A DNA stretch of 43,249 nucleotides from Kribbella turkmenica (lineage in GTDB: Bacteria; Actinomycetota; Actinomycetes; Propionibacteriales; Kribbellaceae): assembly GCF_004348725.1 (NCBI RefSeq), contig NZ_SMKR01000047.1, forward strand, positions 1 to 43,249, given 5' to 3'. Within the stretch, counting starts at the first letter, position 1, and every line of letters begins with the position of its first letter. Shown here one piece after another: positions 924-27,251 of this stretch. The position numbers and the translations under genes were made by a program. Under the pieces are notes generated by a model. It saw only the letters and a program-made list of their open reading frames with translations. It was not told where the DNA came from and did not search any database.

Positions 924-3900
924 CTACTGGGTGTCGGTGATGGTCAGGGTTACTGGCAAGGCGGCGCCGAGGTACAGGTGGGTGACGACGTACTTGGCGT
1001 TGGAGGGTATGACACCGGTCTCGTCGGGCGCCGCGGTGGCGACCTGGCCGAGGAGCTGGCAGGACGAGCTGTAGAAGTAGACGTCCAGGTCCCAGGTGCC
1101 GATACCTGAGCCCTTGACCGAGATGGCATGGGCGCCGTCACCGGACTCGCCGGAGAGGGTGGTCACATGGCCGTCGACGTCCTGGCTGGCCGGCGGAGCC
1201 ATGCAGGTATTGACGAACTCCGTTCCCGTCACGCCGGGATCGACGACGTTGGCGGGCTCGCCGGCCTTGATGGTGAAGGTCTCGGTGACCGGCGCGTCCG
1301 GCGGCGTGGGCGGCAGCGGCTCGACCTGCTTCACCGTGCCGGAGAAGACCTGCAGGTCACCGGTCTGGACGTTCGTCTTGGTGTCTCCCATCGCCTCGTC
1401 GGTCCAGAACCGCAGGTACGACGCGGTGACCGGCTTGGCGAGGGTGAACGTCTTGTAGTGCACGTCCGGCAGCACCGGCCGGGGAGCCTGGTACGAGAAC
1501 GCGTTCTTGCCGAACGCCGGGACGGTCGTCCAGTTCACCCCGTCGTTGCTGGTCTGCAGCGTGAACGACTTGAGCGCCTCGAACCGGGACGACGTGTAGG
1601 CCGACACCTGTACGGCCGAGATCGCGGCCGGTTGGGCCAGCTTGACCACCGCGTTCCCGGTGCCGGCGGCGGCTGAGAAGGTCGTGCCCTCGGTGTCGTC
1701 GATCAGCGGCTTGGCGCCGTCCGGGTTCGTGGTGGAGACGATGCTCGCGCCGTTCGCCGCCGACGCGAGGTTCGGCGCCAGCACGAACTTCTTCGCCGTG
1801 GTCCCTCCCGCCTTCACCTGCAGGCCGGTGAAGGTCTGGGCTCCGAAGCCCGGCGCCTGGATCGTGACCGGATAGGTCCCCGCGACGGCAGGTACGGCGA
1901 ACGCGCCGGCCGGTCCGGTCTTCGCCGCCGGGCTGACCTTCGCCTCGAACATGCCGAGGATGACCTTGGCACCGGCCACGGGCTTGCCTGTCGACGCGTT
2001 CAGCACGACACCGTTGAGGCTGCCGTTGAGTGCCGGGTTGCGGTGCTCGAAACCCGGCACCGGGTCGATGTCGTTCGCCCCGGTGGGGTCGTCGTCGGTC
2101 GTGTGGTTGCTCGCCGACGTACCCATCCCCCGCTGCGCGAAAGCGGTGTAGACGAGGTCGATCAGCTCACCGGCGTCCGGCCGCGAGTGGTATCTGTTGT
2201 CCAAGGCAACGATCATCGCGTCGCGGACGTCCAGCATCGACGGGTCGTTGGGGGACAGCGGCATCGCGTCGGTGACCGCGCGGGCGGCGATCTCCGAGCC
2301 GAGTGCCTGCCCGTACTTCGCCACCAGGGCCTTGCGCAGCTGCCACAGGGTCGCCGTCCAGATCTCCCCGTCGGCGTGCACCTCCGGTCCGGTCAGGTCG
2401 TACCCGATGTCGCCGAAAGTCGTCGGGTTCTGGTCGTACGGCCAGTTCCGGATCGCCCGGAACGTGTTGCCGGTCGCGTACGCGCCGAGCTCGGAAGTGG
2501 TCTGCAGGCCTTCACGGTGCAGGTAGTCCAGGCCGTACCAGTCACCCCAGCCTTCACCCATCGAGCCGGACTGGTGACCGCCGAGCGCGCCGTCCTCGGT
2601 GCCGACGTAGCGGTTCGACAGACCGTGGGAGTACTCGTGCTGGATGACGCCGGCGTCGAAGTCGCCGTCACGGCACTTGCCCTCGAACGCGTCGTTGATC
2701 GGTTCCCAGAGGAACATTCCGCTCCACGGTGCGATGCCGTCCGGCAGCGTAAGCATGTAGGCGTTGTCGCGCCCGGTGTACGTCGGGGCGCCGCCGGACA
2801 CCGCGCCCGCCTGGGCCAGGCCCTGGATCGCGTCACCGCCCAGACCGCCCTTGCCGAAGTTGTCGATCTGGAAGTTCCCGGCCGACTCCGTGAATCCGAG
2901 GTCGTAGTACTCGTCGTGGATGCGGTTGTGGTGGTAGAAGAGGTTGGTCGCCGACGGATCGATGTCGTGGCTGTACGACGGGACGGCGCACTGCTGCTCG
3001 CCCCACTGGTCGGTGAACACGTAGTTGAACTTGCCCTGCGGATCGGCCGGGCGTGGACCGGGGTCGATCGGGCCGATGAAGTTCGACCAGTTCGCATGCG
3101 CGTTGGCGTTGTTGCCGAAGGTGGTGACGCCGGTTCCGGTCAGGCCGAGCGGGTCCACCCAGCCGTTCGGTGACTCCGGCGTCCGCCCGAACGACACTCG
3201 TTCCGGCGTACCACCGGCGGGCGCGCCCGGGTAGTTGCGGTAGACGGTTCCCTCGGGGTCGAGCGGCCCTTCGTGCTGGACGAGGCTGCGCCGGTACAGC
3301 ACCTCGCCGGACCTGGCGTCCACGAGCACGTCGTACGCCTCGTCCTGAGCTTTGACGAAGAGCACCTGGTACGCCGCGCGGCCGCCTTCAGCGGTGCCGA
3401 AGGTGGTCTTTCGCAGGTACGAGTTCGCGGCGAAGGGGCCCCTGGCAACGACCTGGTAGCCGGCCTGGCTCGCACCGGTGAGGGACGGTTCGTACTTCAC
3501 CTGCGGGGCCAGTGCGGCGGCCACCTTCGTCAGTGCGACCTGTGGGGAGAGGTCGAACGAGCCGACCAGGGCGTTGCTGCGGCTGGTGGAGCCGGTGTAG
3601 CTCAGCACCCGGCCGTCAGCCGCGACGAGAACGCCGACCGAACCACCGCGTGCGGCGGGGATACCGCCGAACGTCTGGGTCAGGTTGACCACCCTGGACC
3701 CGGTGCCGGGCAGCGAATGGTCGCGGCGGACGGCCATTGCGGCGATGTCGGCAGCGCTGAGGCCGAGCACCGCCCGGTTCTCGGTCAGCCAAGCCCTGGC
3801 GACGTCGACGGCCGAGCCGGGCCGTGGTCCGGACAGTGCCTCGCCGACATCCGGTCTGATGGTGCGGGGCGTGCCGTAGCGCGGATCCCAGGTGACGCGG

Positions 3901-4112
3901 GCGCCGGCACCGGCACCGGCAAGGATCGCCGCGACGGCGTCGACCTGGCTGGTGGTAGGACGGACCAGCGAGGCGACGCGGCTGTCGGCTACCACGCCGG
4001 CCGGGGACGGATCGACCAGCGCCTGTGCGCCGGTAGTTGCGCCGAAGGCGCCTATCAGGGCTGATCCCGCGGCCAGCAGTGCCAGGGATCTCACAACGAG
4101 CGGATTGCGCAT
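924..4112 (-). CDS. Secreted M36 (fungalysin-type) zinc metalloprotease
   Basis: A 1062-aa exported protease. Order: signal peptide (about 1-35, two Arg then a hydrophobic Leu/Ala core), FTP/PepSY-like propeptide (about 60-270), then the M36 catalytic domain with the zinc site HEYSH at 492-496 and the third ligand Glu520 in GEGWGD. These match the fungalysin signatures HEYTHG and GEGWSD. After it come a carboxypeptidase-regulatory-like beta domain (starting NGVVLNASTGKPVAGAKV), an F5/8 type C (discoidin-like) module and a proline-linked C-terminal beta domain. The extra modules probably bind polymer or cell surface. The frame stays open upstream to 4667, but ATG at 4112 has GAGGTG about 8 bases upstream and starts a proper signal peptide. 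Monocistronic. Expected role: extracellular protein degradation. Confidence 0.93.
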   Translation of the reverse strand: MRNPLVVRSLALLAAGSALIGAFGATTGAQALVDPSPAGVVADSRVASLVRPTTSQVDAVAAILAGAGAGARVTWDPRYGTPRTIRPDVGEALSGPRPGSAVDVARAWLTENRAVLGLSAADIAAMAVRRDHSLPGTGSRVVNLTQTFGGIPAARGGSVGVLVAADGRVLSYTGSTSRSNALVGSFDLSPQVALTKVAAALAPQVKYEPSLTGASQAGYQVVARGPFAANSYLRKTTFGTAEGGRAAYQVLFVKAQDEAYDVLVDARSGEVLYRRSLVQHEGPLDPEGTVYRNYPGAPAGGTPERVSFGRTPESPNGWVDPLGLTGTGVTTFGNNANAHANWSNFIGPIDPGPRPADPQGKFNYVFTDQWGEQQCAVPSYSHDIDPSATNLFYHHNRIHDEYYDLGFTESAGNFQIDNFGKGGLGGDAIQGLAQAGAVSGGAPTYTGRDNAYMLTLPDGIAPWSGMFLWEPINDAFEGKCRDGDFDAGVIQHEYSHGLSNRYVGTEDGALGGHQSGSMGEGWGDWYGLDYLHREGLQTTSELGAYATGNTFRAIRNWPYDQNPTTFGDIGYDLTGPEVHADGEIWTATLWQLRKALVAKYGQALGSEIAARAVTDAMPLSPNDPSMLDVRDAMIVALDNRYHSRPDAGELIDLVYTAFAQRGMGTSASNHTTDDDPTGANDIDPVPGFEHRNPALNGSLNGVVLNASTGKPVAGAKVILGMFEAKVSPAAKTGPAGAFAVPAVAGTYPVTIQAPGFGAQTFTGLQVKAGGTTAKKFVLAPNLASAANGASIVSTTNPDGAKPLIDDTEGTTFSAAAGTGNAVVKLAQPAAISAVQVSAYTSSRFEALKSFTLQTSNDGVNWTTVPAFGKNAFSYQAPRPVLPDVHYKTFTLAKPVTASYLRFWTDEAMGDTKTNVQTGDLQVFSGTVKQVEPLPPTPPDAPVTETFTIKAGEPANVVDPGVTGTEFVNTCMAPPASQDVDGHVTTLSGESGDGAHAISVKGSGIGTWDLDVYFYSSSCQLLGQVATAAPDETGVIPSNAKYVVTHLYLGAALPVTLTITDTQ

Positions 4113-4162
4113 GGCGGAACACCTCACAGTTCCTCGCTCCGCAGAGCGTGTTCGATTCGGGC

Positions 4163-4190
4163 GGTGAATCTGAGTGCTCAACGATTCACC
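4163..4190. promoter_or_regulatory. Dyad upstream of the M36 protease
   Basis: GGTGAATC (4163-4170) and GATTCACC (4183-4190) are perfect 8-bp inverted arms. The 12-base centre contains a smaller dyad, TGAGTGCTCA. The site is 51-78 bases upstream of the protease start, where a repressor or activator could act. It lies in the 328-base gap 4113-4440 between divergent genes. In the rest of that gap I see only a weak GGAACC/GGTTCC dyad near 4230-4275 and the ribosome site of the next gene. The regulator is unknown. Confidence 0.4.
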
Positions 4191-4440
4191 AGGGTCGGGG
4201 TTACGCCGTTCTTTCGAGGGTCGTGGTCGGGAACCTTGGACGTGAATTCCCCTCATTTCCTGGGGTTCCGAGGCCCGCTGGGTCGCCGAGACAGCCGGGC
4301 CGGATGACCATCGGACGCAACGAGATCGCGCTCGCCCTTGCCGCGCCGTGACCCGGTCGGCCGGGTTCGGCGAGATACGCGTCACCGTCCATGGACGCGG
4401 CTCGTCCGCTGTGCGAATCTGCTCGAGGGAGGGGCGGCCA

Positions 4441-4839
4441 ATGGACAACGAACTTCGGGTGCAGGTGCTGGTTCCCCGCGAAGCGGTCCAGGAGTTGCGG
4501 CAGGCCGGCGACGTGCAGGTGAGCGAGCCGACGGCGGTCCGGCCCGACCGGGCGCTGGCCGACGGCGGTTTCGTCGAGTTCGTCGTCATCGGGCTGGTCG
4601 GTCTGGCCGGTGCGGTGATCTCGCGGCTGGTCCGGTTGCACGAACGCAACACCGAGTCGGGCGTCATCCTGGATCTCGGGACGGATCCGCCGTCGATCAG
4701 CTACGTCGCGCGGGTTCCGCACGGCACGCTGATCGTGCGCGAGCCGAACCGGCCGGCGCAGGTCCACAGCCTGCAGGGCAAGGATCCGGTGGAGGTCCAG
4801 CAGTTGTTCGACGTGCTGGTGGCGGCTGCCGGCGGCTGA
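4441..4839 (+). CDS. Small one-TM protein, possibly EACC1-like
   Basis: A 132-aa protein. An N-terminal charged segment (1-40) is followed by a hydrophobic helix at about residues 42-62 (FVEFVVIGLVGLAGAVI) and a C-terminal soluble part with alternating beta-type residues and a terminal helix (PVEVQQLFDVLVAAA). The layout recalls the actinobacterial effector-associated constant component EACC1 family known beside conflict-system peptidases, but I cannot confirm homology by eye. The frame is open from 4348; ATG at 4441 is chosen for the strong GAGGGAGGGG 7-16 bases upstream. The stop is one base before the next start, so the two genes are almost certainly cotranscribed and translationally coupled. 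Confidence 0.7.
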   Translation: MDNELRVQVLVPREAVQELRQAGDVQVSEPTAVRPDRALADGGFVEFVVIGLVGLAGAVISRLVRLHERNTESGVILDLGTDPPSISYVARVPHGTLIVREPNRPAQVHSLQGKDPVEVQQLFDVLVAAAGG

Positions 4840-6250: not shown

Positions 6251-6709
6251 ATGGCTGATGTACCGGGGCGCCCGCAGCCGCCCGCGATGCTGGGGAACCT
6301 GACGTTCGTGCTGGCGATGGCGGGCGGTTCGGCGCGGGTGCGCGTCGAAGAGGTGCTGTCCGCGTTCGGGATCGGCCTGCGGGGACTCGGCATCCTGGCC
6401 CATCTCGCGGTCGAGCCCGACCTGTCGTACTCCGCGCTGGCCCGCCGGTCGAACGTCACCGTCCAGACCATGACGGCGTCGATCAAAGCACTGCAGACCA
6501 GCGGGTTCATCGCCCCCCGGGACCCCACTCGCGCCGGACGGGCGGCGCGATTGCTGCTGACCGAGTACGGGCGGCAGACCCTGGCCGCCGTCGACGAGGC
6601 GGTCGCCGCGATGTCCGACGACTGGCTTCCGCTCGACGCCGCCGAGCGGAAGATCCTGGCCGCGCTGCTCGCGAAGGTCGTGCGCGCGACCGTCGAGCGC
6701 AGTACCTGA
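6251..6709 (+). CDS. MarR family transcriptional regulator
   Basis: A 152-aa winged-helix regulator of normal MarR length. The DNA-binding part lies at about residues 45-105 (LSYSALARRSNVTVQTMTAS as helix-turn-helix, then a basic wing around RDPTRAGRAARLLLT), with dimerisation helices at both ends. There is no good Shine-Dalgarno before ATG 6251. GACGAT 6 bases before it could be a -10 box of a leaderless transcript. A GTTGCC/GGCAAC dyad upstream is the likely autoregulatory site. The peroxidase gene starts 33 bases downstream on the same strand but has its own palindrome, so control of that gene by this MarR is possible but not shown. Ligand unknown. Confidence 0.85.
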   Translation: MADVPGRPQPPAMLGNLTFVLAMAGGSARVRVEEVLSAFGIGLRGLGILAHLAVEPDLSYSALARRSNVTVQTMTASIKALQTSGFIAPRDPTRAGRAARLLLTEYGRQTLAAVDEAVAAMSDDWLPLDAAERKILAALLAKVVRATVERST

Positions 6710-6713
6710 CCGT

Positions 6714-6736
6714 AACCTACAGGGACCCTGTAGGTT
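6714..6736. promoter_or_regulatory. Perfect palindrome over the DyP promoter, iron-box-like
   Basis: AACCTACAGGG (6714-6724) and CCCTGTAGGTT (6726-6736) are perfect 11-bp arms around one base, ending 6 bases before the peroxidase ATG. TAGGTT (6731-6736) would serve as -10 of a leaderless transcript, so a bound protein would block initiation. TAGGTTAGG (6731-6739) equals one half of the IdeR/DtxR iron box and GTAACCTAC (6712-6720) nearly equals the other half. Iron control fits a DyP/EfeB-type gene but is inference. Confidence 0.55.
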
Positions 6737-6742
6737 AGGTCC

Positions 6743-8116
6743 ATGTCATCCGATCCGGACTTCTCCGCGCCTACCGTCCGTCCCTCCCGTCGCGCCGTTC
6801 TCACGCACGGCGCCGCTGCGGCCACCGCGGCGGCCGTCGGTGTCGCCGCGGGTACGCAGCTCGATTCCGCGGACGCCGCCCCGCCCAGCCCGGTGGTGCC
6901 GTTCTACGGCGAACACCAGGCAGGCATCGTCACCGAGCAGCAGTCGAACGTCGTCCTCGCGGCCTTCGACGTCACCGCCGGCAGGGCCGGTCTGCGTCGG
7001 CTGCTGGACGACTGGACAGCCCTCGGTGCCGCGTTGAGCGAGGGCCGGCCCGCTCCGGCGCGCAAGCAGCAACCCGCCGGACTGGCGGCCGACTCGGCGA
7101 TCGCGTCCGGGCTCGATCCGGCCCGGTTCACGATGACCGTCGGGCTCGGGCCCGGGCTCTTCGACCGCCGGTTCGGCCTGGCCGCGCGGCGACCGGCGAA
7201 GCTCGACCCGTTGCCGTCGTTCCCGGGAGACGATGCGCTCGACGAGGTGCGCAGCGGCGGCGACCTGATTGTGCAGTTGTGCGCGGACGACCCGCAGGTG
7301 CTGAGTCACGCCTTCCTGCAGGTCCGCGCGACGGCTCCCGGCCTGGCACGTCTGCGCTGGTCGGACACGGGGTTCATCAGCCGGCCCTCGAACGGGCACG
7401 CGCCACGCAACCTGCTGGGCCAGCAGGACGGTACGGCGAATCCGGCGCCGGGCCCTGATCGTGATCGACTGGTGTGGGTCGACAAGTCCGCCGAACCGGC
7501 GTGGATGCACGGTGGGACCTACCTGGTGTTCCGGCGCATCAGATTGCGCCTGCCGGACTGGTCGCTGACCCCCGTGGCCAAGCAGGACCAGGCGATCGGG
7601 CGGCGGGTCGACGGGTCACCGCTCTCGGCGCCGGCCGGTGCGGACCCGTCCACGCCGCTCGACCTCGACGCGAAGGACGCCACGGGTGGCCCGGCCATCC
7701 CGGCCAGGGCGCACGTCCGGCAGATGCACCGCTTCGAGATGTACCGCCGCTCGTACAACTACGACCGCGGCTTCGATCCCCACGCGGCGCCGGGCCACGG
7801 CGCGGACGGGCACGCCTCGGCGGGACACGGGCACGGCCATGGTCATGGGCATGGTGATGGGCATGGTGATGGGCATGGTGATGGGCATCGTCATGGGCAT
7901 GGTGATGGTGATGGTCATGTGGGACACGACTCGTACGACGCCGGCCTGTTGTTCCTGACGTACACCCAGGATCCGGCCCGCCAGTTCGTCCCGGCGCAGC
8001 ATGTCCTCGCCACCGTCGACGACCTGAACCGCTTCCTCCAGACGACCGGCAGCGGCATCTTCGCCGTCCCGCCGGGTCTCCGCCCCGGCCGTTCGTTAGC
8101 GGCAGGGCTCGTATAG
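6743..8116 (+). CDS. Tat-exported DyP-type haem peroxidase with His-rich insert
   Basis: A 457-aa DyP-type peroxidase of the EfeB-like branch. The N-terminus has a Tat-type signal (SRRAVLTHGAAAATAAAVG, then an Ala-rich stretch) ending near residue 45, so it is exported folded with haem. The GxxDG signature is GQQDG with distal Asp229. Near 315-340 the segment AHVRQMHRFEMYRRSYNYDRG matches the proximal His and YNY region of EfeB-like enzymes. Between about residues 348 and 397 there is an insert with 15 His in about 50 residues, rich in Gly and Asp, that family members normally lack. The family takes electrons from substrates using H2O2, and EfeB members are tied to iron or haem handling. No efeU or efeO lies beside it. 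Confidence 0.92.
   Translation: MSSDPDFSAPTVRPSRRAVLTHGAAAATAAAVGVAAGTQLDSADAAPPSPVVPFYGEHQAGIVTEQQSNVVLAAFDVTAGRAGLRRLLDDWTALGAALSEGRPAPARKQQPAGLAADSAIASGLDPARFTMTVGLGPGLFDRRFGLAARRPAKLDPLPSFPGDDALDEVRSGGDLIVQLCADDPQVLSHAFLQVRATAPGLARLRWSDTGFISRPSNGHAPRNLLGQQDGTANPAPGPDRDRLVWVDKSAEPAWMHGGTYLVFRRIRLRLPDWSLTPVAKQDQAIGRRVDGSPLSAPAGADPSTPLDLDAKDATGGPAIPARAHVRQMHRFEMYRRSYNYDRGFDPHAAPGHGADGHASAGHGHGHGHGHGDGHGDGHGDGHRHGHGDGDGHVGHDSYDAGLLFLTYTQDPARQFVPAQHVLATVDDLNRFLQTTGSGIFAVPPGLRPGRSLAAGLV
7847..7906 (+). repeat. 12-bp in-frame tandem repeat (Gly-His-Gly-Asp)
   Basis: Five units of GGGCATGGTGAT: copies 1-3 and 5 are identical, copy 4 (7883-7894) is GGGCATCGTCAT. Degenerate units continue on both sides (about 7826-7918). 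It encodes the GHGD repeats of the peroxidase insert. Unit length is a multiple of three, so copy number can vary without frameshift. Confidence 0.9.
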
Positions 8117-8143
8117 ATGCTCTGGTGGGCGGCGTCTCGCCGT

Positions 8144-8376
8144 TCAGTGACGGGCGGTCCGGCCGCGAAGGAAATGGATGACAGCGGCGACCGGTCCGCA
8201 CACCAGTCCGGTGCCCGCGCCGGTGAAGAGACTGCCGATGCTCATCGCGCCACGCAGGAAGGCCTCCTCGGCGCCCGCGGACAGCGTGCCCTGCAGATCG
8301 CCGAGACTTGGGGTCACGGTGGTGAAGACCCGGTTCCAGAACAGGTCGTGCCCGATCGCCAGGATGGCGCCGTCGC
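8144..8376 (-). pseudogene. Short hydrophobic coding stretch, possible gene remnant
   Basis: Directly downstream of the APH-like gene, in another frame, about 77 codons read like real protein (GAILAIGHDLFWNRVF, then two Ala/Gly-rich hydrophobic segments near the end, and FLRGRTARH before the stop). The frame remains open upstream to an ATG at 8494, but that part is a Arg/Pro-rich shadow of the kinase gene. Internal start choices are poor; a GTG at 8317 would give 57 aa. I read it as a truncated membrane-protein tail, though a small real gene coupled to the kinase stop is possible. Confidence 0.3.
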
Positions 8377-9234
8377 TCAGTTGGGGGTGAACAACCAGTC
8401 GACGGCGGCGAGCGACTTGTCGAGGTACGGCGTGCGGCCGGTCTCGAGGCCGAACCGGAGGTCTTCGAGCAGGGAGCAGCGGGCGTAGAACCACGCGCGC
8501 TCCCGGAGCTCGTCCCCGGCCGGGTACCGGTCGAGCGCCGCGTCGAAGGCGGCCGGTCCCAGGTCACGCAGGATCAGGCCGAAGTCGCGGGCCGGGTCGC
8601 AGCGGGCGGCGTCCGACCAGTCGATGACGCCGGTGATCTTCTCGGTGCCCGGGGCAACGAGGACGTGTTCGATGCCAAGGTCGTTGTGGGAGAAGACGAG
8701 CTCGGGCGCCGGGTCGGGGAGCGGCCGGAGCAGGAACTCTTCGACCGCGCGGTGGTTGGCCGGTGGCAACGCCTGCCCGACGTCCGCGTACTGCTCGGCC
8801 GCCTCGTCGCGCCAGTCGGCCAATGGTTCCTCGTCGCGGTCGACCAGGCCGGTCCATCGGCCAGGGTCCGACCTGTGCAGTACGGCGAGGAACGCACCCA
8901 GTTCGGCGCCGATCGTCACGGCGTGCGTCGTCCGGTCGGCGATCGGGATGTCGATCAGCGGCGTACCCGTGAGCTTCCGGTAGGCCAGGCAGTCGTGCTC
9001 GGCGAGCGCGAAAACCGGTGCCGGAACCGGCAACGGGCTGACCTCACCGACCCTGCCGAGCAGCGCCTCCTCCCGGCTGACCGAGCCCGGCTCGCGGGCG
9101 ATCCGGACCACGAGTTCGTCGTTCACCGCGAACGCCACGTTGTCCAGCCCCGCGCCCAGCCGCACCACCCGCCGGACGTCGTACCCCGGCAACCCGATTC
9201 CCACCAGCCGTCGAACCTCCCCTTCGGTCACCAC
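8377..9234 (-). CDS. APH-family phosphotransferase
   Basis: A kinase of the aminoglycoside/macrolide phosphotransferase and choline kinase superfamily, 285 aa from GTG 9234. The N-lobe holds LGAGLDNVAFAVNDELVVRIAR (nucleotide loop and Lys-like position). The catalytic loop is HNDLGIEHVL, in which the usual metal-binding Asn of the HxDxxxxN pattern is His. The metal motif is DWSDAARCDPARDFG. Substrate is unknown; such genes phosphorylate antibiotics, sugars or small amines, and resistance should not be assumed. The frame is open to 9318, but residues before the GTG look non-coding. TAGGCT 7 bases before GTG suggests a leaderless mRNA. Divergent from the methyltransferase. Confidence 0.85.
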   Translation of the reverse strand: MVTEGEVRRLVGIGLPGYDVRRVVRLGAGLDNVAFAVNDELVVRIAREPGSVSREEALLGRVGEVSPLPVPAPVFALAEHDCLAYRKLTGTPLIDIPIADRTTHAVTIGAELGAFLAVLHRSDPGRWTGLVDRDEEPLADWRDEAAEQYADVGQALPPANHRAVEEFLLRPLPDPAPELVFSHNDLGIEHVLVAPGTEKITGVIDWSDAARCDPARDFGLILRDLGPAAFDAALDRYPAGDELRERAWFYARCSLLEDLRFGLETGRTPYLDKSLAAVDWLFTPN

Positions 9235-26255: not shown

Positions 26256-27251
26256 ATGGTTCGGTGGCAGAAGAAGGCAGCGGCCGTGGGGGCTGCGCTC
26301 GTGCTGGTCGCGGCGCTGGGCGCGTGCAGCTCGTCCGGCGGCAAGCAGGAGGAGCAGAACTCCGGCGGATCGGGCGGCAACGTGGCCGACACTCCGCGCA
26401 TGAAGGTCGCGTTCATCACACACGCGGCGCCCGGTGACACCTTCTGGGACCTGGTCCGCAGAGGTGCCGAGGCCGCGGCGAAGAAGGACAACGTCGAGCT
26501 GCAGTACTCCGCCGCGCCGGAGGGGGCCGACCAGGCCAACCTGGTGCAGACCGCGATCGACTCCAAGGTCGACGGCATCGCGGTCACGCTGGCGAAGGCC
26601 GACGCGATGCAGGCCAACGTGAAGAAGGCGGCCGACGGCGGCATCCCGGTGGTGGCGCTGAACGGCGGCATCGAGGCCTGGAAGCAGACCGGCGCACTCG
26701 GCTACTTCGGCCAGGACGAGCGGATCGCGGGCCAGGCCGCCGGCGAGAAGCTGACCCAGCTCGGGGCGAAGAAGGCGGTCTGTGTCATCCAGGAGCAGGG
26801 CCACGTCGGCCTGGAGGCCCGGTGCCAGGGCGTGAAGGACAAGTTCCCGAACTCCGAGAAGATCTACATCACCGGCACCGACATGCCCGGCAGCACGACG
26901 ACCATGACCTCGAAGCTGCAGCAGGACAAGAGCATCGACTACGTGGTCACCCTCGGCGCGCCGTTCGCGATGGCCGCGGTCCAGGCGGTGAAGGACGCCG
27001 GCTCGAGCGCGAAGATCGGCACCTTCGACACCAACAAGGACCTGGTCGGCGCGATCAAGGACGGCAAGGTGCAGTGGGCCGTCGACCAGCAGCCGTACCT
27101 GCAGGGCTACCTGGCGGTGGACAGCCTGTGGCTCTACAAGACGAACGGCAACACCATCGGCGGTGGCCAGGCCACGCTGACCGGTCCGGCGTTCATCGAC
27201 AAGGACAACGTCGCGGCGGTCGAGAAGTTCGCTGCCGGCGGGACGCGCTGA
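26256..27251 (+). CDS. Sugar ABC transporter substrate-binding lipoprotein
   Basis: A 331-aa ribose-type binding protein (Peripla_BP_4). A lipoprotein signal peptide ends in the lipobox LGAC with lipidated Cys24, followed by a Ser/Gly linker. The binding core starts MKVAFITHAAPGDTFWDLVRRGAEAAA and includes VDGIAVTLAKADAM, IPVVALNGGI, DERIAGQAAG and IGTFDTN, all standard for this family. ATG 26256 is preferred because it starts the signal peptide; the nearest ribosome-site candidate, AAAGG, is about 12 bases upstream. Position between iolD/iolE-like and iolG/iolA points to inositol as ligand, comparable in role to Caulobacter IbpA (inference). Confidence 0.92.
   Translation: MVRWQKKAAAVGAALVLVAALGACSSSGGKQEEQNSGGSGGNVADTPRMKVAFITHAAPGDTFWDLVRRGAEAAAKKDNVELQYSAAPEGADQANLVQTAIDSKVDGIAVTLAKADAMQANVKKAADGGIPVVALNGGIEAWKQTGALGYFGQDERIAGQAAGEKLTQLGAKKAVCVIQEQGHVGLEARCQGVKDKFPNSEKIYITGTDMPGSTTTMTSKLQQDKSIDYVVTLGAPFAMAAVQAVKDAGSSAKIGTFDTNKDLVGAIKDGKVQWAVDQQPYLQGYLAVDSLWLYKTNGNTIGGGQATLTGPAFIDKDNVAAVEKFAAGGTR

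What the first reader, a model, noticed from the sequence alone, without database searches (positions are those of the whole stretch)
7786..7932. His-rich repeat insert in a DyP peroxidase
About 50 residues contain 15 His, built from a 12-bp tandem unit encoding GHGD, placed just after the proximal-His region. Such inserts are known in metal-handling proteins (for example nickel or zinc chaperones) but not as a standard part of DyP enzymes. It may bind Fe, Cu, Ni or Zn outside the membrane or tune haem loading, and can change length by slippage.
Basis: seen in the sequence. Interest (0 to 1): 0.6.

Follow-up and report, generated by a model that had tools for sequence, protein, structure and literature searches.

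The report
Peroxidase with a histidine-rich metal arm
A probably secreted bacterial haem peroxidase carries a flexible histidine-rich loop, likely a metal-binding arm, and such loops mark a small branch of the enzyme family that the papers searched do not describe.

Summary
In detail: window 6743-8116 encodes a DyP peroxidase with a 55-residue loop (residues 344-398) holding 15 His; the 12-bp GHGD array is at 7838-7919. The loop is not a private oddity. In 15 of 15 complete members of one DyP clade the same hairpin tip has 25-55 residues and 4-15 His; 145 of 147 other DyPs compared have at most 8 residues and one His there. Ten of 15 loops share an HxH-x6/7-HxH core, and all 15 have a His 2 or 4 residues before a fixed Asp. 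The window loop lacks the exact core: its middle looks expanded by tandem duplication, and the sister species has 28 residues and 6 His. The loop lies between the equivalents of DtpA Tyr374, a radical site, and its proton acceptor Asp385, both kept in 15 of 15. No EfeO/EfeU was found beside 16 clade loci. I think it is an extracytoplasmic metal-binding arm at the enzyme's electron exit; metal binding is inferred, and oxidation of the bound metal is a bolder guess. The extra GHGD copies may be near-neutral. The papers searched do not describe it. New variant of a known kind.

The parts
6743..8116 (+). DyP-type haem peroxidase, 457 aa, N-terminal twin-arginine (SRRAVL) export signal
   Evidence: Dyp_perox_N and _C; DyP superfamily 224.9 bits over cut-off 100.5; AlphaFold model matches DyP structures; Tat motif read by eye
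7427..7429 (+). Distal Asp229 of the G-x-x-D-G motif
   Evidence: D in 15 of 15 clade members and 145 of 147 others, 2 gaps; role from family knowledge
7532..7534 (+). Distal Arg264
   Evidence: R in 15 of 15 and 145 of 147, 2 gaps; role from family knowledge
7712..7714 (+). Proximal haem-ligand His324
   Evidence: H in 15 of 15 and 145 of 147, 2 gaps; role from family knowledge
7760..7762 (+). Tyr340, equivalent of DtpA Tyr374 (radical site)
   Evidence: DtpA Tyr374 described in PMC10646903
7772..7936 (+). His-rich hairpin-tip loop, residues 344-398, 15 His in 55
7838..7919 (+). 12-bp tandem array (CATGGTGATGGG) coding GHGD-type repeats, 56% GC in a 70% GC window, CAT/GAT/GGT codons
7916..7927 (+). 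His392 and His395, 7 and 4 residues before Asp399; both offsets are filled by His in 9 of 15 clade loops
7937..7939 (+). Asp399, equivalent of DtpA Asp385 (proton acceptor of Tyr374)
6251..6709 (+). MarR-type regulator directly upstream, a relative of which lies near 6 of 16 clade loci
   Evidence: Pfam MarR_2/HTH_24 over cut-off
6714..6736 (.). 23-bp palindrome AACCTACAGGG-A-CCCTGTAGGTT between regulator and peroxidase, probable operator

Best explanation
Shown by computation: the insert is the expanded form of a His-rich arm, predicted disordered here, at the tip of one beta hairpin, and every complete member of one clade of twin-arginine-type DyP peroxidases has such an arm. The hairpin joins the equivalents of the radical-bearing Tyr374 and the proton-accepting Asp385 of Streptomyces DtpA, and the arm's commonest form is HxH-x6-HxH-xx-H-xxx-Asp (5 of 15). 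Inferred: outside the membrane the arm binds a divalent or redox-active transition metal. Copper is my first guess, because loop ligands are His plus Asp/Glu with at most one Met and no Cys, and because the related DtpA works in copper trafficking. The arm would place the metal beside the Tyr/Asp electron exit, so that haem compound I can oxidise the bound metal, or the metal can bring in a substrate. Also inferred: the extra GHGD copies in this species arose by recent in-frame tandem duplication, add capacity at most, and may be close to neutral. My rough odds: structure and clade 0.95; arm binds metal in the cell 0.6; metal is redox substrate or cofactor of the peroxidase 0.25.
For: Bimodal loop: 15 complete clade members have 25-55 residues with 4-15 His; of 147 others, 145 have 8 or fewer and 2 have 16-17, all with at most 1 His (3 of the 147 have a gap at one or both anchor residues). 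With the insert columns left out, the His-loop rows form one group, SH-aLRT 98, together with one contig-truncated row (quick tree). His is 74 of 478 loop residues in the 14 other members v 117 of 4838 elsewhere, Fisher P 2e-30; 33 HxH pairs in 15 loops were not reached in 20,000 within-loop shuffles, and 14 of 15 loops hold an HxH. A His stands 4 residues before the Asp in 12 of 15 and 2 before it in 3 of 15. The Tyr/Asp pair is kept in 15 of 15 clade members v 45 of 144 others with letters at both places. AlphaFold: hairpin strands 334-344 and 398-408, residues 353-392 pLDDT under 50. DtpA Tyr374 carries a stable radical, its change to Phe lowers substrate oxidation 200-fold (PMC10646903 Introduction), and it lies about 5 A under a surface cavity (PMC11168072 passages).
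Against: No metal was shown to bind. The HxH-x6/7-HxH core is missing in 5 of 15 loops, the window and its sister among them, and one loop (L110) has no HxH at all. Copper genes (CopC, CopD, DUF1775, multicopper oxidase) were found near only 3 of 16 clade loci and none was noticed near the window gene or its sister; the look was by eye, not systematic. Three of 10 control DyP loci, all of the window's genus, sit near a PCuAC-type copper chaperone gene, so copper neighbours are not special to the clade. The MarR neighbour has no Cys and one His (sequence), so nothing points to a metal sensor. The sister copy has only 6 His. GHGHG stretches occur in other proteins of this genome, such as a GroEL-family ORF and a YibE/F protein.
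Confidence: 0.5

Rival explanations
1. The clade motif is functional, but the long GHGD array of this species is a near-neutral microsatellite-like expansion in a disordered surface loop.
For: The array is 56% GC with CAT/GAT/GGT codons, while the rest of the gene uses CAC 7 to 1 over CAT; 6/12-bp units keep the frame; the sister species has 28 residues and 6 His; His at -7 and -4 is kept in both while the middle differs.
Against: His is kept or gained rather than diluted in the expansion (15 of 55); 11 of the 14 other clade loops, of 31-38 residues, have no such array and still keep HxH pairs.
Confidence: 0.3
2. The arm is a passive metal sink or protector: it holds copper, zinc or nickel outside the cell, or keeps loose metal from reacting with peroxide at the haem, without entering catalysis.
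For: His/Asp-rich low-complexity arms are typical of metal storage and chaperone proteins (recalled); the loop is predicted disordered; a GroEL-family ORF of the same genome carries a GHGHG stretch too.
Against: The fixed place between the redox Tyr and its Asp, and the Tyr/Asp pair kept in 15 of 15, suggest a link with catalysis; the pair is also present in 45 of 144 short-loop DyPs, so it is not proof.
Confidence: 0.25
3. The arm acts in haem loading, export quality control, dimer contact or pH tuning, not in metal handling.
For: DtpA and DtpAa are reported as homodimers with a surface cavity, above Tyr374 in DtpA (PMC11168072 passages); His-rich loops can sense pH, and Tat exports folded, cofactor-loaded proteins (recalled).
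Against: The spaced HxH pairs look like metal ligands; solved short-loop DyPs have haem and form dimers without it.
Confidence: 0.12
4. Artefact: assembly error in the repeat, or an overlapping gene on the other strand is the real one.
For: The assembly has 351 contigs; an antisense ORF 7539-8567 (-) also reads His-rich there.
Against: The array is about 80 bp; the + frame carries conserved DyP strands on both sides of the loop, and 14 other genomes have complete His loops at the same place.
Confidence: 0.02

Closest known systems
DtpA of Streptomyces lividans/coelicolor (A-type DyP, PDB 5map, 6gzw, 4gt2)
   Same: DyP fold, twin-arginine export signal, Tyr374/Asp385 pair kept at the same places
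   Different: 10 residues without a His cluster between Tyr374 and Asp385 in DtpA, 58 between Tyr340 and Asp399 here; the dtpA gene lies in the sco-ecuc-SLI_4212-dtpA operon (PMC4736821 passages), the window gene beside a MarR gene
EfeB / YwbN / DtpAa (iron uptake deferrochelatase/peroxidase, TIGR01412)
   Same: Same superfamily and domain order, twin-arginine signal; matches the TIGR01412 model
   Different: Scores 339.5 bits, under the 428 cut-off; no EfeO/EfeU found beside 16 clade loci, some cut by contig ends; no His loop in the EfeB-like loci compared
CueO/McoA/McoP metallo-oxidases with Met-rich loops over the T1 copper
   Same: Works-like analogy: an oxidase with a flexible loop near its electron entry; for CueO the loop was claimed to add copper ligands (PMC11111587 passages)
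   Different: Unrelated fold and cofactor; Met-rich rather than His-rich; uses O2 rather than H2O2 (recalled)
His-rich arms of nickel/zinc/copper proteins such as HypB, SlyD, actinobacterial GroEL1 (recalled)
   Same: Low-complexity GHGH-type stretches
   Different: There mostly at the ends of chaperones (recalled); here spliced into an enzyme hairpin

Membership tests
DyP-type peroxidase superfamily (PF04261 + PF20628, TIGR01413) | Both DyP domains over cut-off | tested here: met
   97.3 bits v 20.4 and 99.6 v 20; TIGR01413 224.9 v 100.5
DyP-type peroxidase superfamily (PF04261 + PF20628, TIGR01413) | GxxDG Asp, distal Arg, proximal His | tested here: met
   D229, R264, H324 aligned and invariant where letters exist
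DyP-type peroxidase superfamily (PF04261 + PF20628, TIGR01413) | DyP fold | tested here: met
   AlphaFold mean pLDDT 80.8; the 50 best PDB rows shown are DyPs, TM by target 0.84-0.90
DyP-type peroxidase superfamily (PF04261 + PF20628, TIGR01413) | Haem binding and H2O2-dependent activity | not testable with these tools
   needs protein
EfeB equivalog (TIGR01412) | Score over the curated cut-off 428 | tested here: not met
   339.5 bits; six other clade members 335.9-367.6; three short-loop DyPs 525.4-537.7, but a fourth short-loop one (L089) also only 356.1
EfeB equivalog (TIGR01412) | Operon with EfeU/FTR1 and EfeO | tested here: not met
   relatives of both in 0 of 16 clade loci v 6 of 10 control loci (BLAST clustering; imelysin/EfeO-type and FTR1 named by Pfam for one control)
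DtpA | Radical Tyr374 with Asp385 | tested here: met
   residues only: Tyr340/Asp399, 15 of 15 clade members; the radical itself was not tested
DtpA | Operon with the copper chaperone ECuC (PCuAC family) | tested here: not met
   the PCuAC gene of the control loci clusters with no gene of the 16 clade loci; a PCuAC gene does sit by another exported DyP of this genome (L188)
DtpA | Operon with the copper chaperone Sco | not tested
   no Sco query was run
DtpA | Short turn between Tyr374 and Asp385 | tested here: not met
   58 residues between the equivalents here v 10 in DtpA
His-rich metal-binding arm | Conserved His spacing | tested here: inconclusive
   for: offsets 18,16,9,7,4 in 5 of 15 loops, the same core in 5 more (L111 with x7), a His at -4 or -2 in 15 of 15; against: the window and 4 others lack the core
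His-rich metal-binding arm | Binds metal in the cell | not testable with these tools
   needs biochemistry

The most novel reading that the evidence does not exclude
A haem peroxidase clade that has built its metal substrate site into its own electron exit: the His arm between the radical Tyr and its proton-accepting Asp loads Cu(I), Mn(II) or Fe(II), and compound I oxidises the bound metal through the Tyr radical with H2O2, giving a haem-based counterpart of the Met-loop multicopper metallo-oxidases, with arm length evolving by in-frame repeat slippage.
Probability: 0.22. Interest if true: 0.75.

Novelty: new variant of a known kind. Interest (0 to 1): 0.5.

Why it matters
What most DyP peroxidases do in the cell is still open. 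A clade with a likely metal-ligand arm spliced between the two residues that control the radical site in DtpA gives a direct, testable link between DyP chemistry and metal handling: delete the arm, change the Tyr or the Asp, and measure metal oxidation. It also gives a natural set of loops (4 to 15 His) for testing dose and slippage.

Tried and rejected
Rejected: that the insert is unique to this gene (14 other complete clade members have such a loop); that the protein is a plain EfeB (below cut-off, no EfeUO found); that copper genes are clearly linked to the clade (3 of 16 by eye, while 3 of 10 controls sit near PCuAC); that the regulator is a metal or thiol sensor (no Cys, one His in window 6251-6709, sequence); that the antisense His-rich ORF is the real gene. 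Led nowhere: plasmid tblastn gave 37 records, all under 60% identity, whose loops I did not inspect; the phylum-wide search with the clade profile gave no new member, the best other match being 348 bits; paper searches for DyP or EfeB with histidine-rich or His-rich gave nothing on topic in the listings. Not possible: strain-level repeat counts, because only one genome per species is held; distances in the model, because no coordinates are given.

Limits: only 4 candidates per genome were scored (6, up to 11), so absence is not firm; loops were read only in loci that were returned. Loci were picked by likeness to this protein, so counts describe the fetched set. Related rows are not independent, so the Fisher and shuffle values overstate. 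Neighbour genes come from my own simple gene caller; Pfam was run only on neighbours I chose; L129, L131 and L187 are cut by contig ends. The 10 controls were my choice: one has the 16-residue loop (L183), three are other DyPs of the window's genus (L188, L191, L192), six are EfeB-like. The tree is the quick method, on 67 rows: all 15 complete clade rows, 3 others (L180, L174, L167), and every third of the remaining rows in name order (49). The clade profile A1 was built from 9 of the members it was then used to score.

Full report
What is there. The ORF at 6743-8116 (+) encodes 457 residues with a twin-arginine stretch (SRRAVL, read by eye) and both DyP domains over cut-off. NCBIfam places it in the DyP superfamily (224.9 bits v 100.5) but under the EfeB equivalog cut-off (339.5 v 428). 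Between residues 344 and 398 lie 15 His, 19 Gly and 8 Asp; the rest of the mature protein (taken from residue 47) has 7 His in 356 residues. The 12-bp array at 7838-7919 is the core. It is 56% GC against 70% for the window and is written with CAT; CAT makes 9 of 15 loop His codons and 1 of 8 elsewhere in the gene. The first and last His codons of the loop are CAC, those of the array CAT, which fits an older loop with a younger duplicated middle; that last step is inference.

Where it sits. An AlphaFold model (43 sequences, mean pLDDT 80.8) shows strands 334-344 and 398-408 with residues 353-392 under pLDDT 50. The 50 best PDB rows shown are DyPs. So the insert is a probably disordered tip of a beta hairpin. 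phmmer against DtpA puts window Tyr340 on the Tyr of RRPFSY and Asp399 on the Asp of DAGLLF. The 11-residue step between them in DtpA matches the numbers Tyr374 and Asp385 given in PMC10646903 (Introduction read). In DtpA these form a hydrogen-bonded unit through a water, Tyr374 carries a stable radical, and its change to Phe lowers the substrate oxidation rate 200-fold (same section). PMC11168072 (passages) adds that Tyr374 is about 8 A from the haem, on the distal side, and about 5 A beneath a negatively charged cavity of the homodimer. The insert therefore starts four residues after the redox Tyr equivalent and ends at its proton acceptor. How near its root is to the cavity was not measured.

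Relatives. In the genus, 2 of 38 genomes match at E 1e-70 or better: this one and G009, 78% identical, whose loop is 28 residues with 6 His. Wider searches gave members with such loops in the order (391 genomes: G000, G009, G122, G280), the class (394: six more besides G000), and the families of those hits (3 of 22, 1 of 5, 3 of 150, 5 of 251); the family of G122 gave only G122 (1 of 147). That makes 16 genomes in seven family codes. Among 163 distinct DyP ORFs in the loci then held, plus the query itself (164 rows; one ORF duplicates the query), 15 loops have 25-55 residues with 4-15 His. One (L180) is cut by its contig end, two (L167, L174, one genome) have 16-17 residues without His, and 145 have 8 or fewer with at most one His (3 of these 147 non-clade rows have a gap at an anchor).

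Tree and motif. With the insert columns left out, the 15 His-loop rows plus the truncated one form one group, SH-aLRT 98 (quick tree, unrooted, 67 rows). His positions counted back from the Asp include 18, 16, 9, 7, 4 in five loops. The same HxH-x6-HxH core recurs, shifted, in L165, L113, L114 and L115, and with one more residue in L111: 10 of 15. It is missing in five: the window (17, 15, 13, 7, 4 and ten more further up), G009 (20, 13, 11, 9, 7, 4), L110, L112 and L166. His at both -7 and -4 is found in 9 of 15. A His stands at -4 in 12 of 15 and at -2 in the other 3; no within-loop shuffle of 20,000 reached this, nor the 33 HxH pairs (14 of 15 loops have an HxH, L110 has none). The 14 other loops have no more than one Cys or Met together, that one being Met, and the window loop has neither. 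The Tyr/Asp pair is present in 15 of 15 clade members against 45 of 144 others with letters at both places. Shared descent makes these tests too optimistic.

Neighbours. Relatives of EfeO and EfeU lie beside 0 of 16 clade loci and 6 of 10 control loci (Pfam names checked on one control). A related MarR-type gene lies beside or near 6 of 16 clade loci (window, G009, G612, G1122, G1197, G1421) and 0 of 10 controls; Fisher P 0.053. Between regulator and peroxidase the window has a perfect 23-bp palindrome, AACCTACAGGG-A-CCCTGTAGGTT (6714-6736). It is letter-identical in G009 and present as AACCTTCAGGGTGCCTGAAGGTT in G612; two copies with 3 mismatches lie between the MarR gene and the next gene in G1122. 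None was found in the other two MarR-linked loci (G1197, G1421) or in the 10 controls; one further 3-mismatch hit in the window at 27096 looks like chance. This is a likely operator. Copper genes occur near 3 of 16 (CopC and a multicopper oxidase in G122, a multicopper oxidase in G280, CopC-CopD and DUF1775 in G430), found by eye and not by a full scan. In this genome another exported DyP (C331) lies beside a PCu(A)C copper chaperone, so a DtpA-like copper locus exists separately.

Interpretation. The clade loop looks like a metal-ligand arm: spaced His pairs, acidic residues, flexible, outside the membrane. For the related DtpA, the authors hypothesise that it oxidises Sco-bound Cu(I), and they compare this with EfeB oxidising Fe(II) (PMC4736821 passages). 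An arm that holds the metal itself beside the Tyr/Asp exit is a natural next step, but nothing here shows binding or turnover. The window's extra GHGD copies are best read as recent in-frame expansion that may add capacity or be close to neutral. The nearest works-like case is the Met-rich loop over the T1 copper of prokaryotic metallo-oxidases (PMC11111587 passages), an analogy only.

Literature. Searches for dye-decolorizing peroxidase with histidine-rich (2 papers), DyP-type peroxidase with metal-binding and His-rich (none), EfeB with histidine-rich (4 papers) and four of five among DyP-type peroxidase, insertion, histidine residues, loop and actinobacteria (10 of 39 listed) showed nothing on this loop; I saw listings only. 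The DyP review PMC8197335 holds neither the word loop nor insert in its main text (passages). Subscription papers are mostly not held, so this is not proof of absence.

Noticed in passing
window 6714-6736; L123:8765-8787; L128:9153-9175; L181:12055 and 12083: Perfect 23-bp palindrome between a MarR-type gene and the peroxidase, identical in the sister species and, in changed form, in two members of another family (G612, G1122): a likely operator.
   Followed up: partly
L197:1423-2718, L201:1497-3020 (same genome as the window): Other GHGHG stretches in this genome: the N end of a YibE/F-like membrane protein and an ORF matching the GroEL (Cpn60) family. Actinobacterial GroEL1 is known for a His-rich tail (recalled).
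   Followed up: partly
L188:6286-8060 (G000 contig C331): Another exported DyP of the genome directly follows a PCu(A)C copper chaperone gene, a DtpA-like copper arrangement.
   Followed up: partly
L184:7291-8665: Beside one clade peroxidase lie nitrile hydratase genes, and the alpha chain begins with a His-rich stretch (HTHDHGAH).
   Followed up: no
L181:10624-12042, L182:9106-9378, L184:10855-11301: Small membrane proteins near DUF2269 and DUF3817 (below cut-off where scanned) and HD-domain-type proteins recur beside some clade peroxidases.
   Followed up: no
L167 and L174 (G1110): Two DyPs of one genome have a 16-17 residue loop without His at the same place, intermediate in length.
   Followed up: no
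window 924-4667 (-): Looks like a secreted zinc metallopeptidase (HEYSHGLSNRY); family recalled, not scanned.
   Followed up: no
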